The notes beneath the pieces were generated by a model, which ran no database searches, was not told the DNA's origin, and saw only the letters and a list, made by a program, of their open reading frames with translations. From Alphaproteobacteria bacterium (GTDB lineage Bacteria > Pseudomonadota > Alphaproteobacteria > Sphingomonadales > Sphingomonadaceae): 6,001 nucleotides of DNA. The position numbers and the translations under genes are program-made. Shown here piece after piece: positions 185 to 5,120 of the stretch; positions within the stretch are counted from its first letter, which is position 1, and each line of letters opens with the position of its first letter. The stretch lies in assembly GCA_028293005.1 (NCBI GenBank), contig JAQGLH010000148.1, positions 1-6,001 on the forward strand, in the 5' to 3' direction.

Positions 185-664
185 ATGACGTCACGCCCCC
201 TCACCCAAGGCGAACGCGCGCTTGCCCGCTCGATCTTCGGCGATGCGATCGATTATGCCCCGGTCAGAATCAAGCGACGACGCTGGTTCCCGCTGCAGCC
301 ACGCCACATCGTGATGGCACCGACCGGCCATATCCATGTCCATCCCGCCAGCGAACAATGGAGTGAGGATTACAGCAATGAACCGCTCCGCATGCAGGCG
401 CTCTTCCTCCACGAGCTGACCCACGTGTGGCAAAGCCAGATGTGCGGGAAATATTATCTGCCGCTGATGCGCCATCCCTTCTGCCGCTACAGCTACCGCC
501 TCAAGCCCGGCCGGCGCTTCAAGGATTACGGGCTCGAGCAGCAGGCCGAGATCGTTCGGCACCTCTTCCTGCTCAGGAACGGCGCTAGCGTGATCGGCGC
601 GCCGCCGCTGGCCATGCTCGAAGCGCTTGTGCCGTTCGGTGCCCACCAGCCGGCTAATTCGTGA
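185..664 (+). CDS. HELTH-motif putative zinc-metalloprotease-like protein ('vgr related protein' type)
   Basis: The product is 159 aa with no signal peptide or membrane segment. Residues 72-83 (ALFLHELTHVWQ) contain an HExxH zinc-binding motif, H76-E77-L-T-H80, in a hydrophobic helix. About 40 residues later E118 lies in an ExxA context (EQQAE, 118-122), where a third zinc ligand would be expected in a gluzincin-like site. The LxHELTHVxQ context resembles the DUF4157/eCIS-core metallopeptidase-like domain. Sphingomonad homologues are commonly named 'vgr related protein', but the sequence contains no VgrG spike domain. The middle is rich in Arg, His and Tyr. ATG at 185 is the only sensible start; no strong Shine-Dalgarno precedes it, so it may depend on read-through from the copper chaperone gene. 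Whether it is an active peptidase, and on what, cannot be told. Confidence 0.75.
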   Translation: MTSRPLTQGERALARSIFGDAIDYAPVRIKRRRWFPLQPRHIVMAPTGHIHVHPASEQWSEDYSNEPLRMQALFLHELTHVWQSQMCGKYYLPLMRHPFCRYSYRLKPGRRFKDYGLEQQAEIVRHLFLLRNGASVIGAPPLAMLEALVPFGAHQPANS

Positions 665-737: not shown

Positions 738-1397
738 GTGACGGTGCACGAATCGAAGCCGCGCGCGGCACGCCTCTGGGCCTCATCGACCATCCCCTCC
801 TCGTTGCTGGCGGTCATGATGCTCGCCGCCTGCGGATCGTCGGGCTCGGAGCCGGCACCGGAAGGCCAGGCGTCCAACGGCCTCACCGTCGAGCTGCCCG
901 CCGCCGAACCTTATCAGACGGTGACCCGTCCCGAGGCCGCGGCACCAGCGACCGCAATGGCTGCCGCGACGGACAAGGCGAGCGTCGAAGCGATCCCCGA
1001 AGCCGCGCCGGCCGACGAGGAAGCGCCAGAGAAGAAGCCGCCTGAGAAGACTGGAGAGACGAAAGCGGCCGAGAAGGATCGTAAAGCGACCCCGGCGCCG
1101 ACCGCACCCACTGCGCCGGCCGAGGAGAAACAAAAAGCCGCTCCCGCCAAAGCCGCCGACCGCGGCAAGAGCGACGCATCCGACGAGGTTCGGCTGCGTC
1201 CGACCCGCCCGCCGCTTGGCGACGCCGAGATCGCGCGCACGATCGACCGGATCGGCTTCGCCTGCGGCAAGGTCGTCTCGTCAGCGGCCGTCGAGGGCGG
1301 TCCCAAAGGAACCTACAAGATCAACTGCTCTTCGGGCGAAGCCTATCAAGGCACGACCAAGGGCGGCCATCTGTTCTTCCGCCCGTGGACCGGCTAG
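738..1397 (+). CDS. Putative lipoprotein with charged Ala/Pro linker and two-cysteine C-terminal domain
   Basis: The product is 219 aa from a GTG start. A hydrophobic stretch at about 20-31 ends in L29-A-A-C32, a good lipobox followed by GSSGS, so Cys32 should be lipidated and the protein anchored to the membrane, probably facing the periplasm. Residues about 65-147 form a low-complexity region rich in Ala, Pro, Glu and Lys, resembling an extended spacer across the periplasm or through peptidoglycan. The C-terminal part (about 155-219) looks folded. It has GFACGKVV (C176) and YKINC (C197) followed by an aromatic GGHLFFRPW end, and the two cysteines could form a disulfide. Similar C...YxxxC..G..Y tails occur in small hypothetical alphaproteobacterial envelope proteins, but I cannot name a family. 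The gene has its own likely promoter and faces the exosortase operon tail to tail. Confidence 0.8.
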   Translation: MTVHESKPRAARLWASSTIPSSLLAVMMLAACGSSGSEPAPEGQASNGLTVELPAAEPYQTVTRPEAAAPATAMAAATDKASVEAIPEAAPADEEAPEKKPPEKTGETKAAEKDRKATPAPTAPTAPAEEKQKAAPAKAADRGKSDASDEVRLRPTRPPLGDAEIARTIDRIGFACGKVVSSAAVEGGPKGTYKINCSSGEAYQGTTKGGHLFFRPWTG

Positions 1398-1543: not shown

Positions 1544-2026
1544 CTACCGAGCGAAGGTCGATATCGCCTCCCAGCGCAGGCGCCCGATGTCGCAGCCGCG
1601 CGATGCAGCGACGGCGAGGATCGGCGCGCGCGGTGCGGCGACGCCGAGCCGGCGAAGCTCGCGTCCGATGAAATATTCGATCAGCGGCAGCAGCTTGGGC
1701 GCTCGATCGGTGACGCGGCCACGATAAACGAAATGGAGCGGGCCGACCGGCCGCGCGAGACGCGCATAGGTCTGAGCGAGCGTGCCATGCGGCGGATAAT
1801 TGCGGATCGCCAGGCGGCAGCCGTCGCGCTGCGCGGTGACCATCATCCCCAGCGGGCGCAGCTCGGCGGCAGCCGAATAACCTTCGCGTTCGAGGAAGCC
1901 GGAGACCTGGCTTGCGAAAAGCTGTCCGTCCGGCGGGGGCTCGCCTCGCGAGGCGCCGAGCTTAAGGCCCAGGCTGAGGACGAGCAGCCCGACCAGCGTG
2001 ACTTCAAGCGCGTTGGAAAATTTCAC
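1544..2026 (-). CDS. Exosortase-associated accessory protein (XrtV sorting system accessory type)
   Basis: The product is 160 aa. One N-terminal membrane segment (about 8-24, VTLVGLLVLSLGLKLG) is followed by a soluble domain, probably periplasmic. The domain carries two cysteines, C70 in DGCRLAI and C145 in SRGCDIG, and aromatic/basic stretches such as HFVYRGRV (98-105). The GTG start at 2026-2024 overlaps the 3' end of the exosortase gene by 23 nt with no clear Shine-Dalgarno, which suggests translational coupling. Its size, topology and position match the small helper encoded beside XrtV-type exosortases, and it may be a distant counterpart of the EpsI-like partner of other exosortases. Its biochemical role is not known from the sequence; handling the substrate or the acceptor molecule is only a guess. 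Confidence 0.75.
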   Translation of the reverse strand: MKFSNALEVTLVGLLVLSLGLKLGASRGEPPPDGQLFASQVSGFLEREGYSAAAELRPLGMMVTAQRDGCRLAIRNYPPHGTLAQTYARLARPVGPLHFVYRGRVTDRAPKLLPLIEYFIGRELRRLGVAAPRAPILAVAASRGCDIGRLRWEAISTFAR

Positions 2027-2852
2027 GCCGCGCGCCGTAGAGGCAAATCCCCGCCACCGAGATCAGGGTCAGCCAGGAGAAGACATGCCAGCCGACACCG
2101 GTGTGGATCTGATCGAAATGGGCCGGGAAGAGACCGATCGCGCCTATCCTGAGCACGTTGATCGCGATCGTCACCATAAACGCGGCGAGCAGCGCCATGA
2201 GCGCGGCACGTCTGAACGGCACCTCGAAACATTGATTGACCAGCGCCCACATCACGATCGCGACCGACATGCCCTGAAGCGACGAGCAGCCCGGCGCGAC
2301 CGCGAACTGACCGCTGCCATCGGCAAAGCTGATGAAGTTGCTAACCCTCCCAATGCCGAACAGGCTCGCGACGAGGAAGCTGTCGGCATCGAGCAGCGGT
2401 CCGCTGAACAACGCAAGCACCAGCCTTCCCCAGATCAGCATACCGGTGATCGCAAGAAAGATGATCGCCGCACGACGAAGGTTCGATCCGCGCGCGCTGG
2501 TTGCGATCGCGTATAGCGACAAAAGGGTCAGCGCCCCCGAACTCGCCGGCCCGATCGGCACCAGCACCGCCGCCGCGATTAGCCCGGCCATCCACAGATC
2601 CAGTCGCCGCACCGGCTCCTGCAACGCGGGCTGGACGAGAAGCGCAATACCGGCCGCAGCCGCAACCCAAACGATCGCGCTGATCCCGAACAAATTGCCG
2701 AGCGACGAAGCCAGATCGTGCGCATAGTAAAATTGCAGCGCGAAGCCGAGCAGCGCGTTGCTGATCGCGAGCAGGAAAAGCCAGAGGAAGAGTTTGGGTC
2801 GGGCTAGGCGTGCGCCGGCGCGCGCGGTCGAACCCTCAATTGCCGGGGTCAT
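2004..2852 (-). CDS. xrtV: Exosortase (XrtV-type), membrane transpeptidase-like sorting enzyme
   Basis: The product is 282 aa with about eight hydrophobic segments, typical in length and topology of the exosortase/archaeosortase superfamily. The conserved catalytic residues are present in order: Cys189 in APGCSSLQGM, Arg235 in INVLRIGAI, and His250 in QIHTGVGWH. These enzymes recognise a C-terminal motif-helix-basic-tail signal on secreted proteins at the membrane, cleave it, and are thought to transfer the protein to another molecule. Two candidate substrates lie directly upstream in the same operon and the accessory gene overlaps downstream. The ATG at 2852 has no clear Shine-Dalgarno, unlike the substrate genes, so the enzyme is probably made at a lower level. 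The superfamily is near certain. The V subtype is inferred from the accessory partner and the sphingomonad-like context; an HMM comparison would settle it. Confidence 0.9.
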   Translation of the reverse strand: MTPAIEGSTARAGARLARPKLFLWLFLLAISNALLGFALQFYYAHDLASSLGNLFGISAIVWVAAAAGIALLVQPALQEPVRRLDLWMAGLIAAAVLVPIGPASSGALTLLSLYAIATSARGSNLRRAAIIFLAITGMLIWGRLVLALFSGPLLDADSFLVASLFGIGRVSNFISFADGSGQFAVAPGCSSLQGMSVAIVMWALVNQCFEVPFRRAALMALLAAFMVTIAINVLRIGAIGLFPAHFDQIHTGVGWHVFSWLTLISVAGICLYGARREIFQRA

Positions 2853-2866
2853 GCCGCACTTGTAGC

Positions 2867-2900
2867 CCAGATCGTCGGGTCGGCCAGATCGTCGGGTCGG
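2867..2900. repeat. Perfect 17-bp tandem duplication upstream of xrtV
   Basis: The unit CCAGATCGTCGGGTCGG occurs twice back to back (2867-2883 and 2884-2900) with no mismatch. It fills most of the 54-bp gap between the stop of the downstream mini-substrate gene and the exosortase ATG, ending 14 nt before that ATG. It could be a recent slippage duplication, or a pair of sites affecting expression of the enzyme. Confidence 0.85.
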
Positions 2901-2906
2901 AAGGTC

Positions 2907-3095
2907 TCAGCGCCTCGGACGCTTGCGCAGCGCCCAATAGCCGCCCGCAATCGCGAACAGCGCGGGAATTCCGGCCCCGGCGATCGGGGCGGGCACCGTC
3001 GCAGTGACGCATCCTGCCAGGGCGGGCTCCATTGCCACCAGAAGCGAGACACCGATCGGGGCGATGACGCGGATCACAGTCGTGAATGGCAGCAT
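2907..3095 (-). CDS. Mini exosortase substrate 1 (signal peptide plus sorting signal, lipobox-like cysteine)
   Basis: The product is a 62-aa precursor. Residues 1-27 form a signal peptide ending EPALA. Residues 34-44 read VPAPIAGAGIP, then a hydrophobic helix (about 45-56, with a GGYWAL end) and a basic tail, RKRPRR. This is the three-part design of exosortase sorting signals (PEP-CTERM-like), and the gene lies beside an exosortase. Only about six residues (GCVTAT) separate the signal peptide from the sorting motif. L26-A-G-C29 also fits a lipobox, so lipidation at Cys29 is an alternative to ordinary signal peptidase cleavage. It is a clear paralogue of the gene at 3193-3381. A perfect AGGAGG 7 nt before the ATG supports both the start and strong translation. 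The function of the mature peptide is unknown. Confidence 0.82.
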   Translation of the reverse strand: MLPFTTVIRVIAPIGVSLLVAMEPALAGCVTATVPAPIAGAGIPALFAIAGGYWALRKRPRR

Positions 3096-3102
3096 AAGCG
3101 TT

Positions 3103-3108
3103 CCTCCT
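3103..3108 (-). promoter_or_regulatory. Perfect Shine-Dalgarno of mini substrate 1
   Basis: AGGAGG on the minus strand lies 7 nt before the ATG at 3095. The same site and spacing occur in front of the paralogue, which supports both small ORFs as real genes. Confidence 0.85.
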
Positions 3109-3192
3109 GACCAAATACCGCCAGCGCTACTCGGCGGCCCGAGACTTCCGACTTCAGCACCGATGCCGCGCCATCAGCGCGACCAACGACCA

Positions 3193-3381
3193 TTATTTCT
3201 TGCGATTGCGGAGTGCCCAATAGCCGCCAGCGAACGCGATCAGCCCGGGGATGCCCGCGCCGACGATCGGCGCCGGCACGGCGGGCACCGACATGCTCCC
3301 GGCAAAAGCGGGTTCGACTGCTGCGACGGCGGCAACGCCAGCCGCGGCAAGCACCCGCGATGCGCTCGACAGAGAAATCAT
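3193..3381 (-). CDS. Mini exosortase substrate 2 (signal peptide plus sorting signal)
   Basis: The product is a 62-aa precursor, the same length as its neighbour. The signal peptide covers 1-27 with an Ala/Val-rich core and ends EPAFA before G28. The sorting signal is VPAPIVGAGIPG (35-46), followed by a hydrophobic helix with FAGGYWALR and a basic end, RNRKK. After signal peptidase cleavage only about 7-9 residues (GSMSVPA and adjacent) would precede the sorting motif, so almost nothing but the signal exists. Position 29 is Ser where the paralogue has Cys, so this copy is not a lipoprotein. It is the first gene after a near-consensus promoter and has a perfect AGGAGG site. The N-terminal signal peptides of the two paralogues differ a lot while the sorting segments are nearly the same. 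Substrate status is inferred from architecture and neighbourhood. Confidence 0.85.
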   Translation of the reverse strand: MISLSSASRVLAAAGVAAVAAVEPAFAGSMSVPAVPAPIVGAGIPGLIAFAGGYWALRNRKK

Positions 3382-3388
3382 GGGCAGA

Positions 3389-3394
3389 CCTCCT
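3389..3394 (-). promoter_or_regulatory. Perfect Shine-Dalgarno of mini substrate 2
   Basis: AGGAGG on the minus strand lies 7 nt before the ATG at 3381, matching the spacing in front of the paralogue. Confidence 0.85.
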
Positions 3395-3440
3395 CATGCG
3401 AAGCCGCCCCGGTTCGGGTCAGGCGACTCAATGAAATGCG

Positions 3441-3468
3441 ATTGTATGGGCGCCTCCGCTTCTGTCAA
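3441..3468 (-). promoter_or_regulatory. Near-consensus sigma-70 promoter of the exosortase operon
   Basis: Read on the minus strand, TTGACA (3468-3463, six of six) is followed after 16 bp by TACAAT (3446-3441, five of six). Transcription would start near 3434, giving a 5' leader of about 50 nt before the first mini-substrate ATG at 3381. In DNA this GC-rich such a match is unlikely by chance, and no other promoter of similar quality is seen further down the operon. It probably drives both substrates, the exosortase and the accessory gene. Confidence 0.75.
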
Positions 3469-3683: not shown

Positions 3684-4556
3684 ATGCTCGGATCGGCAAG
3701 CGATAGCGTCGTCGGCATACCGGTGGAATGGCTGCCGTTCGCAGCATTCTGGCTGCTGTTCATCGGTCTCGCCTTGGTCGAGCTTATGCTGCCGATCCAC
3801 CAGAGGCCGGTCGAGGCGAAGGGCCGGCTTGCCGCGAATTTCGCACTTGGCGGCAGCGTATTCGCGCTGGCGACCTTTCTCCCGCTGTCGGGCATCCTTG
3901 CCGCTCAATGGGCCGCAAGCCATTCGGTCGGCCTGTTGAACGTAGTGGCGATGCCGCTCGGGCTGGCGCTCGTCCTGACCGTCGCGATCAGGAGCCTGGC
4001 TTCTTATACGATGCATGTCGTCGAGCACAAAGTGCCGCTGCTTTGGCGCTTCCATAAGGTCCATCATTGCGACACGGCGATCGACCTTTCGACCGGCTTT
4101 CGATCCCACCCGCTGGCCGCCATCATACAAGCCGTCGTGTTCGCCTCAGTTGCGATCGTCTTGGGCCTGTCCGTCCCGGCGCTGATCGCTTACGAAGTCC
4201 TGGCGTCAAGCTTTTCGCTGCTGACCCACGCCAACCTCCATCTCGGTCGCGCAGAGCCCTATTTGAGATGGCTGATCATCACGCCGCAGATGCACCATGT
4301 TCATCACTCGGCGGTGCAGCGCGAGACCGACAGCAATTTTGGAGACGTGTTCAGCGTCTGGGACCGACTGCTCGGCACCTATTGCGCACGCAGCGTGGAA
4401 GAGGTGCGCGCCATGCGAATCGGATTGGGAGACTCGCACGACCAGCATGCGGGAAATTTGATCCATCAGCTCAAGCTGCCGCTGCTCGGCTCGACGGCGG
4501 GATCCGCGGCGGCCGCCGCCCCTCCTCCTTCGGCGCGTGCCGAAGGAGCCGGTTGA
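3684..4556 (+). CDS. Fatty acid hydroxylase / sterol desaturase family membrane protein
   Basis: This is an integral membrane di-iron enzyme of the fatty acid hydroxylase superfamily. The ATG at 3684 gives 290 aa and is preceded by GGGTGAG; TTG 3639, ATG 3660 and ATG 3672 are in-frame alternatives with no better site. Counting from 3639, the histidine clusters are HVVEH (126-130), HKVHH (139-143), RSHP (155-158), H197 in THANLH, and HHVHH (219-223), in the expected order and contexts (PLLWRFHKVHH, NFGDVFSVWDRLLGTY). Hydrophobic segments lie at about 32-52, 65-90, 100-120 and 160-195. Members use O2 to hydroxylate or desaturate lipids; the substrate here cannot be read from sequence. The last 15 or so residues are low-complexity Ala/Pro and overlap an inverted repeat. 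It is transcribed away from the exosortase operon. Confidence 0.88.
   Translation: MLGSASDSVVGIPVEWLPFAAFWLLFIGLALVELMLPIHQRPVEAKGRLAANFALGGSVFALATFLPLSGILAAQWAASHSVGLLNVVAMPLGLALVLTVAIRSLASYTMHVVEHKVPLLWRFHKVHHCDTAIDLSTGFRSHPLAAIIQAVVFASVAIVLGLSVPALIAYEVLASSFSLLTHANLHLGRAEPYLRWLIITPQMHHVHHSAVQRETDSNFGDVFSVWDRLLGTYCARSVEEVRAMRIGLGDSHDQHAGNLIHQLKLPLLGSTAGSAAAAAPPPSARAEGAG
4525..4548. terminator. Perfect 10-bp inverted repeat, probable bidirectional terminator
   Basis: CTCCTTCGGC (4525-4534) and GCCGAAGGAG (4539-4548) form a perfect stem around the loop GCGT. It sits in the last codons of the hydroxylase gene, 14 bp before the end of the convergent grpE. No T-run follows on either strand, so this is not a classic intrinsic terminator, but position and stem strength suggest it ends transcription from both sides. 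Confidence 0.55.
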
Positions 4557-4562
4557 GCAAAG

Positions 4563-5120
4563 CTACGGCTTCTTGGCCACGCCGACCAGCGCCGGCCTGA
4601 GCAGACGATCCTTGATCATATAGCCCGATTGCATCTCCTGGACGATCGTCCCGGGCTCCGCCTCATCGTTGGGGATTTCGACCATCGCCTGGTGGCGATT
4701 GGGATCGAGCGGCACACCCATCGCTTCGATGCGGGTGATGCCATTGCGCTGAAACGCCGCGTCGACCTCGCGCGCCGTCGCCTCAATGCCGGCGAGCAAG
4801 GCACTGAGCTTGGGGTCCTGGCGCAATTCCTCGGGGACTGCGGCGAGCGCGCGATCGAGATTGTCCTTCACGGACAGCATCTCGCGCGCAAAACCGGTCA
4901 CCGCATAGGCCGAGGCATTGTGCTTTTCCTGCTCGAGCCGGCGGCGGACATTGTGCGTCTCGGCCTGCGCATAAAGCGCATGCTGGCGCACCTCCTCGAG
5001 CTCCTTTTCGAGCTCGGCGAGCCGGTCGAGCTCGCTGCTTCCCTCCGCTTCCGCCACACCGGTGTCGGGGACGTCGTGGCCGTCTTCGGCTTGTTCGTGC
5101 AGCTTCTGGTCGTCGTTCAT
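4563..5120 (-). CDS. grpE: GrpE, nucleotide exchange factor of DnaK
   Basis: The product is 185 aa, a normal GrpE length. An acidic N-terminal tail (1-30) leads into a long coiled coil (about 31-70, DRLAELEKELEEVRQ). This is followed by the conserved helix MLSVKDNLDRAL (81-92), and the beta-domain signature HQAMVEI (143-149) with GYMIKDRLLRPALV (166-179). GrpE dimers release ADP from DnaK in the cytoplasm so that the DnaK-DnaJ folding cycle can continue. Its ATG overlaps the hrcA stop as ATGA (5117-5120), so the two are co-transcribed and translationally coupled; no strong Shine-Dalgarno is visible. The TAG stop lies 6 bp from the hydroxylase stop on the other strand. Confidence 0.97.
   Translation of the reverse strand: MNDDQKLHEQAEDGHDVPDTGVAEAEGSSELDRLAELEKELEEVRQHALYAQAETHNVRRRLEQEKHNASAYAVTGFAREMLSVKDNLDRALAAVPEELRQDPKLSALLAGIEATAREVDAAFQRNGITRIEAMGVPLDPNRHQAMVEIPNDEAEPGTIVQEMQSGYMIKDRLLRPALVGVAKKP

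What the first reader, a model, noticed from the sequence alone, without database searches (positions are those of the whole stretch)
1544..3468. Self-contained exosortase operon whose substrates are almost pure sorting signal
One promoter appears to drive two 62-aa precursors, the exosortase and its accessory protein. In both precursors the signal peptide (about 27 residues) is followed almost at once by VPAPIxGAGIP, a hydrophobic helix and a basic tail. Known exosortase substrates usually carry a sizeable secreted domain. Here only about 6-9 residues would be left after both cuts. Possible roles are a secreted or lipid/glycan-linked peptide, a membrane microprotein, or a decoy/priming substrate.
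Basis: partly seen in the sequence, partly recalled or inferred. Interest (0 to 1): 0.8.

Follow-up and report, generated by a model that had tools for sequence, protein, structure and literature searches.

The report
Tiny-substrate exosortase with lipid hydroxylase
Some sphingomonad bacteria pair a protein-sorting enzyme with its own tiny precursor, little more than an export signal plus a sorting tail, next to a lipid-modifying gene, which suggests a machine that may join a gene-encoded peptide of a few residues to a membrane lipid.

Summary
Two 62-aa ORFs, an exosortase-like protein and an accessory membrane protein lie in one minus-strand operon. The small ORFs are a real family: 125 of 125 relatives listed have an A-x-A site, 2-10 residues, P-x-P, a helix and a basic tail, and they are under purifying selection. 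In 397 family genomes micro-precursors occur in 5, all among the 8 with this exosortase.

It is adjacent in 13 of 13 micro-precursor loci with enough sequence, absent from six near relatives whose substrates are longer, and one orphan micro-precursor sits beside such a hydroxylase with no exosortase in 9 kb.

Best reading: a dedicated exosortase trims a micro-precursor and probably joins the short peptide to a lipid that the hydroxylase helps make. Processing, transfer and acceptor are inferred, not shown. Tiny exosortase targets have a precedent (NCBIfam TIGR04200, target of XrtJ, 57 positions), so this is a new variant of a known kind.

The parts
3193..3381 (-). Micro-precursor 1 (62 aa): signal peptide to AFA, 8 residues, P-A-P, GAGIP helix, basic tail RNRKK
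   Evidence: ORF; 28 database matches at E<=1, itself included; alignment; dN/dS
2907..3095 (-). Micro-precursor 2 (62 aa): signal peptide to ALA, 7 residues, P-A-P, GAGIP helix, basic tail RKRPRR; an L-A-G-C lipobox overlaps the cut
   Evidence: ORF; alignment; lipobox-like site seen in the sequence, shared by 5 of 125 relatives
2004..2852 (-). Dedicated exosortase-like enzyme (282 aa), presumed catalytic Cys189, Arg235, His250
   Evidence: TIGR04178 33.3 bits over cut-off 23; PF09721 25.9 against 25.7; C189, N232, R235 and H250 invariant in 21 rows
1544..2026 (-). Accessory protein (160 aa): one N-terminal helix plus a small alpha/beta domain, two conserved cysteines
   Evidence: Model with mean pLDDT 88; C70 and C145 invariant in 15 rows; relatives in 12 of 13 hydroxylase-linked loci at E<=1e-3, not found in L049
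3639..4556 (+). Divergent PF04116 fatty-acid-hydroxylase-type gene, conserved partner of the micro-precursors
   Evidence: PF04116 98.8 bits, cut-off 31; adjacent in 13 of 13 micro loci with enough sequence; histidine boxes invariant in 13 rows
3441..3468 (-). Promoter-like site upstream of precursor 1
   Evidence: Consensus match 11 of 12; no such site at the other 14 loci scanned

Best explanation
A dedicated exosortase system with micro-substrates. Each precursor is exported by Sec and cut by signal peptidase I after A-x-A, which leaves a head of about 4-10 residues on a transmembrane tail. The exosortase (Cys189, Arg235, His250) cuts near P-x-P and transfers the new C terminus of the short peptide to a membrane acceptor. 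The divergently encoded PF04116 enzyme hydroxylates that acceptor lipid or its precursor. The product would be a ribosomally encoded lipopeptide of about 5-9 residues on the cell surface. Shown here: the architecture, its conservation, the pairing with adjacent substrates, and the linkage to the hydroxylase. Inferred from exosortase and archaeosortase biology: both cuts and the transfer. Inferred from gene linkage alone: the lipid acceptor and the part played by the hydroxylase.
For: Tripartite micro-precursors in 125 of 125 relatives listed. Micro-precursors in 5 of 397 family genomes, all among the 8 with the exosortase. In 12 of 12 hydroxylase-linked genomes the only strong tail hit is beside the exosortase. 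Exosortase motifs N-x-x-R invariant and H-x-x-x-G kept in at least 90% of 21 rows (motifs from passages of PMC1569441). dN/dS of whole ORFs 0.19-0.50 in 13 of 14 pairs, one pair saturated. Hydroxylase adjacent in 13 of 13 micro loci with enough sequence; the linked copies form one side of a branch in a tree of 35 PF04116 proteins. In 26 genus genomes no other hydroxylase comes near the linked ones in score (341-371 bits, next 188). Orphan precursor-hydroxylase pair in G099. Precedent: the gene order of artA, pssA and pssD led to the finding that these lipid enzymes are needed for processing by archaeosortase ArtA (PMC7157517, sections 6 and 11 read).
Against: No processing, lipid attachment or peptide was observed. 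The cysteine motif is C-S-S, not the C-x-G of EpsH. The hydroxylase's substrate is unknown: it is nearest to ornithine-lipid hydroxylase OlsE but far below its cut-off (72-86 bits against 475), and a strong OlsB-type hit is missing from the linked genomes. L043 has four micro-precursors and no hydroxylase in sight, though its contig ends about 1 kb upstream. L069, a distant relative without the hydroxylase, has a possible tiny substrate lacking an A-x-A site. G409 has a fairly similar hydroxylase (188 bits) with neither exosortase nor precursor found. The coupling of hydroxylase and micro form rests on about two changes in the tree, so the counts are not independent.
Confidence: 0.45

Rival explanations
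1. The precursor is not trimmed to a short head. It acts as a small two-helix membrane protein (or one-helix after signal peptide removal), a subunit or regulator of the exosortase or of the hydroxylase.
For: Model of precursor 1: helices 4-27 and 43-61 with a short loop, at modest confidence (mean pLDDT 75.9, pTM 0.35). The tail is far better conserved than the head. The orphan precursor beside a hydroxylase has no exosortase nearby.
Against: A signal-peptidase-like A-x-A site is kept although the head varies. The same class of tail is carried by longer exported-looking proteins beside relatives of the enzyme.
Confidence: 0.2
2. The exosortase releases the short head as a free secreted peptide, for example a signal, and the hydroxylase has a parallel role in the envelope.
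For: Heads differ between tandem copies and between species, as for diversifying signals; one locus has four copies with different heads.
Against: No receptor, transporter or regulator gene was noted as conserved beside the cassette, but no systematic neighbour search was made. Archaeosortase ArtA, the nearest worked case, is coupled to lipid attachment.
Confidence: 0.15
3. The hydroxylase is only a hitch-hiking neighbour; the exosortase and micro-precursor work without it.
For: Gene order can persist by descent: the linked hydroxylases are consistent with a single origin. L043 shows no hydroxylase in the sequence available.
Against: Linkage in 13 of 13 micro loci whose exosortases are 28-53% identical to the window's where measured; loss of hydroxylase together with a switch to longer substrates in L044-L046; an orphan precursor-hydroxylase pair.
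Confidence: 0.15
4. An ordinary exosortase with larger targets elsewhere; the small ORFs are remnants or decoys.
For: The enzyme is a recognisable exosortase/archaeosortase-type protein, and usual exosortases serve many targets (passages of PMC3237569 and PMC1569441).
Against: No strong tail hit away from the exosortase in 12 of 12 linked genomes; purifying selection on the small ORFs. The 6 genomes tested also hold a separate PF09721 exosortase, XrtA in the two read correctly.
Confidence: 0.05

Closest known systems
XrtJ and its target (NCBIfam TIGR04200 'targ_of_XrtJ', 57 positions; the label 'TM-motif-TM protein' is recalled)
   Same: A tiny exosortase target, about the size of these precursors
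   Different: The precursors do not match TIGR04200 (not among the hits), and the enzyme matches no named Xrt subtype at its cut-off. Whether XrtJ has a hydroxylase neighbour was not tested.
Archaeosortase ArtA with PssA/PssD (PMC7157517, sections 6 and 11 read)
   Same: A sorting enzyme of the same superfamily whose gene order with lipid enzymes predicted a lipid requirement
   Different: ArtA substrates include the large S-layer glycoprotein, and the lipid enzymes make archaetidylserine and probably archaetidylethanolamine; here the substrates are tiny and the lipid gene is a PF04116 hydroxylase
PEP-CTERM/EpsH (XrtA-type) exosortase system (PMC1569441, passages)
   Same: Signal peptide plus C-terminal motif, helix and basic tail; enzyme with N-x-x-R and H-x-x-x-G
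   Different: P-A-P or P-G-P in place of P-E-P, C-S-S in place of C-x-G, no sizeable secreted domain, one to four substrates beside the enzyme
N-acyl amino acid synthases linked to exosortase (Craig 2011; only the title seen, in the reference list of PMC11631085)
   Same: A lipid-acting enzyme linked to an exosortase system
   Different: Another enzyme class; the paper itself was not seen
Ornithine-lipid hydroxylase OlsE (NF052566)
   Same: Nearest curated relative of the linked hydroxylase
   Different: Scores 72-86 bits against a cut-off of 475; no strong OlsB-type synthase hit in the linked genomes

Membership tests
Exosortase/archaeosortase superfamily (TIGR04178, PF09721) | Score over the curated cut-off | tested here: met
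   Window: TIGR04178 33.3 against 23, PF09721 25.9 against 25.7, marginal. Four sphingomonad relatives scanned also pass TIGR04178; L148 does not (19.4)
EpsH-type exosortase | Cys-x-Gly motif (PMC1569441) | tested here: not met
   Cys-Ser-Ser in the window and nearly all of 21 rows
EpsH-type exosortase | Asn-x-x-Arg and His-x-x-x-Gly motifs | tested here: met
   N232, R235 and H250 invariant, G254 in at least 90% of 21 rows
Named exosortase subtypes (Xrt models of NCBIfam) | Score over the subtype cut-off | tested here: not met
   Best subtype XrtD 21 bits against 400; none for the relatives scanned
PEP-CTERM substrate | Tripartite C terminus: motif, helix, basic cluster | tested here: met
   125 of 125 relatives carry P-x-P and a tail of 27-32 residues
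PEP-CTERM substrate | Pro-Glu-Pro motif | tested here: not met
   P-A-P 99, P-G-P 21, P-S-P 3, P-I-P 2 of 125
XrtJ target (TIGR04200) | Match to the 57-position model (cut-off 40 bits) | tested here: not met
   Not listed for the two window precursors at E<=1 nor for any of 25 precursors at E<=0.1
PF04116 fatty acid hydroxylase | Family score and histidine boxes | tested here: met
   98.8 bits, cut-off 31; histidines 126, 130, 139, 142, 143, 219, 222, 223 invariant in 13 rows
OlsE ornithine-lipid hydroxylase (NF052566) | Equivalog cut-off of 475 bits | tested here: not met
   80.6 bits for the window, 72-86 in four relatives
EpsI-type accessory protein | Family or fold match | tested here: inconclusive
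   No Pfam or NCBIfam match at E<=1 for the window protein; structure searches without a clear match
Exosortase as transpeptidase | Cleavage and transfer to an acceptor | not testable with these tools
   Needs biochemistry

The most novel reading that the evidence does not exclude
A pathway for a new class of ribosomally encoded lipopeptides: signal peptidase and an exosortase cut a roughly 55-62 aa precursor down to a peptide of about 5-9 residues and join its C terminus to a membrane lipid made or modified by the linked PF04116 hydroxylase. The sorting enzyme would here be a peptide-lipid ligase that makes a small molecule, not a protein anchor.
Probability: 0.3. Interest if true: 0.85.

Novelty: new variant of a known kind. 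Interest (0 to 1): 0.65.

Why it matters
In the papers seen here the acceptor of exosortase products is not settled, and large substrates make it hard to measure. A product of 5-9 residues could be read directly by LC-MS/MS, giving cut site and acceptor in one experiment. The linked hydroxylase gives a genetic handle on the acceptor, as pssA and pssD did for ArtA. If the lipopeptide reading holds, exosortases would also be biosynthetic enzymes.

Tried and rejected

My errors and biases. L030 was read on the wrong strand (tree; protein 3); one search replaces and leaves the canonical enzymes out. In one search the signal-peptide part of window precursor 1 is cut at the wrong place; only the whole-ORF and tail rows are used, and several dS values exceed 1. 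Cut sites come from simple rules; the rule prefers a site followed by Gly, so its 116 of 125 with Gly at +1 is biased upward (80 of 125 with the plainer rule). The precursor profile A5 and hydroxylase profile A7 contain rows from the genomes they hit; the informative part is the lack of comparable hits in the other genomes. In some searches only up to 6 (exosortase) or 16 (precursor) candidates per genome were scored. The tree holds 22 of about 64 unlinked PF04116 matches, since 30 loci were fetched and 8 repeated linked genes.

Rows dropped.
Full report
1. Observation. The minus strand carries precursor 1 (3193-3381), precursor 2 (2907-3095), an exosortase-like gene (2004-2852) and an accessory gene (1544-2026). 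The enzyme passes TIGR04178 (33.3 bits, cut-off 23) and, marginally, PF09721 (25.9 against 25.7), but no named exosortase subtype. The accessory protein matches no Pfam or NCBIfam model at E<=1. A good sigma-70-like site lies upstream of precursor 1, but the other 14 upstream regions scanned have none, so it says little about the system as a whole.

2. The precursors are a family. Precursor 1 has 28 database matches at E<=1, itself included, all 59-68 aa. A profile of 25 diverse precursors gives 317 matches at E<=1 among 7986 scored candidates, 120 of them listed (only proteins of 0.55 to 1.75 times the query length are candidates, so this search could not find long substrates). The 125 proteins listed were examined: all 125 have P-x-P 27-32 residues from the C terminus, 121 of them 27-29, and an A-x-A-type site 2-10 residues before it, 5 being the commonest distance (44 of 125). 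Heads vary; the tail does not. No NCBIfam model reaches its cut-off for the window precursors; over 25 precursors the weak matches listed include LPXTG, MYXO-CTERM and GVDTG tails.

3. Selection. dN/dS is 0.21 between the two window precursors (tail 0.19). Among the tandem precursors of L043 it is 0.19-0.37 in the five pairs computed (tail 0.02-0.32). Over all 14 pairs computed it is 0.19-0.50 for whole ORFs, with one pair saturated.

4. Co-occurrence. No genome is held for the window, so relatives were used. Of 397 genomes from the family of Sphingomonas parva, 8 have the exosortase and 5 the micro-precursor; all 5 are among the 8 (p about 7e-10 ignoring kinship). The other three (G017, G129, G049; loci L044, L045, L046) have longer Gly-rich substrates beside the exosortase. 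Elsewhere the exosortase was found in 5 of 26 genus genomes, 8 of 396 order genomes and, with a wider profile, 9 of 385 class genomes, overlapping sets included. Each of the six genomes tested also has one separate PF09721 exosortase; the two read on the right strand are XrtA.

5. The missed gene. A divergent PF04116 hydroxylase lies beside the precursors in the window and in L001-L006, L047, L048, L049, L054, L055 and L056: 13 loci, which are all the micro-precursor loci with enough upstream sequence. L043, with four tandem precursors, ends about 1 kb upstream. The 12 genomes have 2-13 PF04116 genes each, so by my arithmetic adjacency by chance is of the order of 1% or less per genome. The 13 linked hydroxylases are one side of a branch in a tree of 35 (1 change against 10.7 for shuffled labels; branch support only 71/57). 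Their profile scores 341-371 bits in the five exosortase genomes of the genus, whose own hydroxylases are in the profile; in the other 21 the best is 188 bits (G409, where neither exosortase nor precursor was found) and then 115 or less.

6. Contrast. In the corrected exosortase tree the micro-precursor loci form one group of 17 rows (99/98) with L044-L046 nested inside. L044-L046 lack the hydroxylase and have longer substrates. The neighbouring group (L067, L068, L146-L148; 96/94) also lacks it; where substrates were found there (L067, L068, L148) they are longer too and carry a P-x-P/G-x-G-type tail. Five long precursors measured (L045, L046, L067 and two of L148) have 32-90 residues between cut and motif; L044 and L068 were not measured. 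So 13 of 13 micro loci have the hydroxylase against 0 of 6 longer-substrate loci (p about 4e-5 ignoring kinship), but by the tree this rests on about two changes. Against a strict rule: L069, more distant and without hydroxylase, has a possible tiny substrate lacking A-x-A. In Rhizobium sp. WL3 (L147) a relative of the enzyme and its accessory lie in an exopolysaccharide cluster.

7. Orphan pair. On another contig of G099 a 53-aa micro-precursor (L106 3976-4137 -; E 5.2e-10) lies 100 bp from a divergent hydroxylase (4238-5032 +), with no exosortase match at E<=1 in the 9 kb fetched. This ties the hydroxylase to the precursor itself.

8. Mechanism. From exosortase and archaeosortase work the precursor should be exported, cut by signal peptidase, cut again near the motif and transferred. 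ArtA is the nearest worked case: gene order with pssA and pssD led to the finding that both are needed for cleavage and lipid labelling of ArtA substrates (PMC7157517, sections 6 and 11 read). By analogy the hydroxylase should shape the acceptor lipid. It is nearest to OlsE, which hydroxylates the ornithine part of ornithine lipids (PMC3972451, passages), but no strong OlsB-type hit occurs in the linked genomes, so ornithine lipid is disfavoured and the acceptor stays open. Precursor 2, and 5 of 125 relatives, have a lipobox-like site at the cut, so a minority may be handled as lipoproteins. The precursor model shows two helices with a short loop at modest confidence, which also fits the rival of an untrimmed membrane microprotein.

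9. Known or new. Tiny exosortase targets have a precedent, TIGR04200 'targ_of_XrtJ' with 57 positions; these precursors do not match it. PMC3237569 (passages) calls an enzyme with a single target a dedicated system and proposes that conserved neighbours of such systems may reveal unknown components; that is how the hydroxylase came to light here. I place the enzyme in the broad exosortase/archaeosortase superfamily, not among EpsH/PEP-CTERM exosortases, since C-x-G and P-E-P were tested and not met. Verdict: a new variant of a known kind, with a bold but testable reading as a lipopeptide pathway.

Noticed in passing
window 2907-3095 (-): Precursor 2 reads PALAGC: an L-A-G-C lipobox overlaps the A-x-A site, so it may be a lipoprotein; 5 of 125 relatives have such a site.
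   Followed up: partly
L106 3976-4137 (-) and 4238-5032 (+): Orphan micro-precursor beside a divergent hydroxylase, with no exosortase match in 9 kb.
   Followed up: yes
L043 6824-7635 (-): Four tandem micro-precursors with different heads (TKFV, FEVV, GSVVV, ELAPV) upstream of one exosortase.
   Followed up: partly
L148 4000-4720: Microvirga ossetica plasmid: two Gly-rich precursors, on opposite strands, with the tail VPGPIAGAGLP beside a related exosortase and no hydroxylase.
   Followed up: partly
L069 6906-7112 (+): Possible tiny substrate (hydrophobic segment, PSPAP, helix, basic tail) without an A-x-A site, near a distant exosortase.
   Followed up: no
window 185-664 (+): 159-aa ORF with an HELTH (HExxH) motif, metalloprotease-like; only weak Pfam matches.
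   Followed up: no
window 738-1397 (+): 219-aa ORF rich in Ala, Pro and Lys with a lipobox-like LAAC near its start.
   Followed up: no
window 1544-2026 (-): Two cysteines of the accessory protein (C70, C145) are invariant in 15 rows, perhaps a periplasmic disulfide.
   Followed up: partly
database proteins P0009, P0133, P0135, P0144: One exosortase and three different micro-precursors share the longest-contig length 10536, so they are probably on one contig (inferred from length alone).
   Followed up: no
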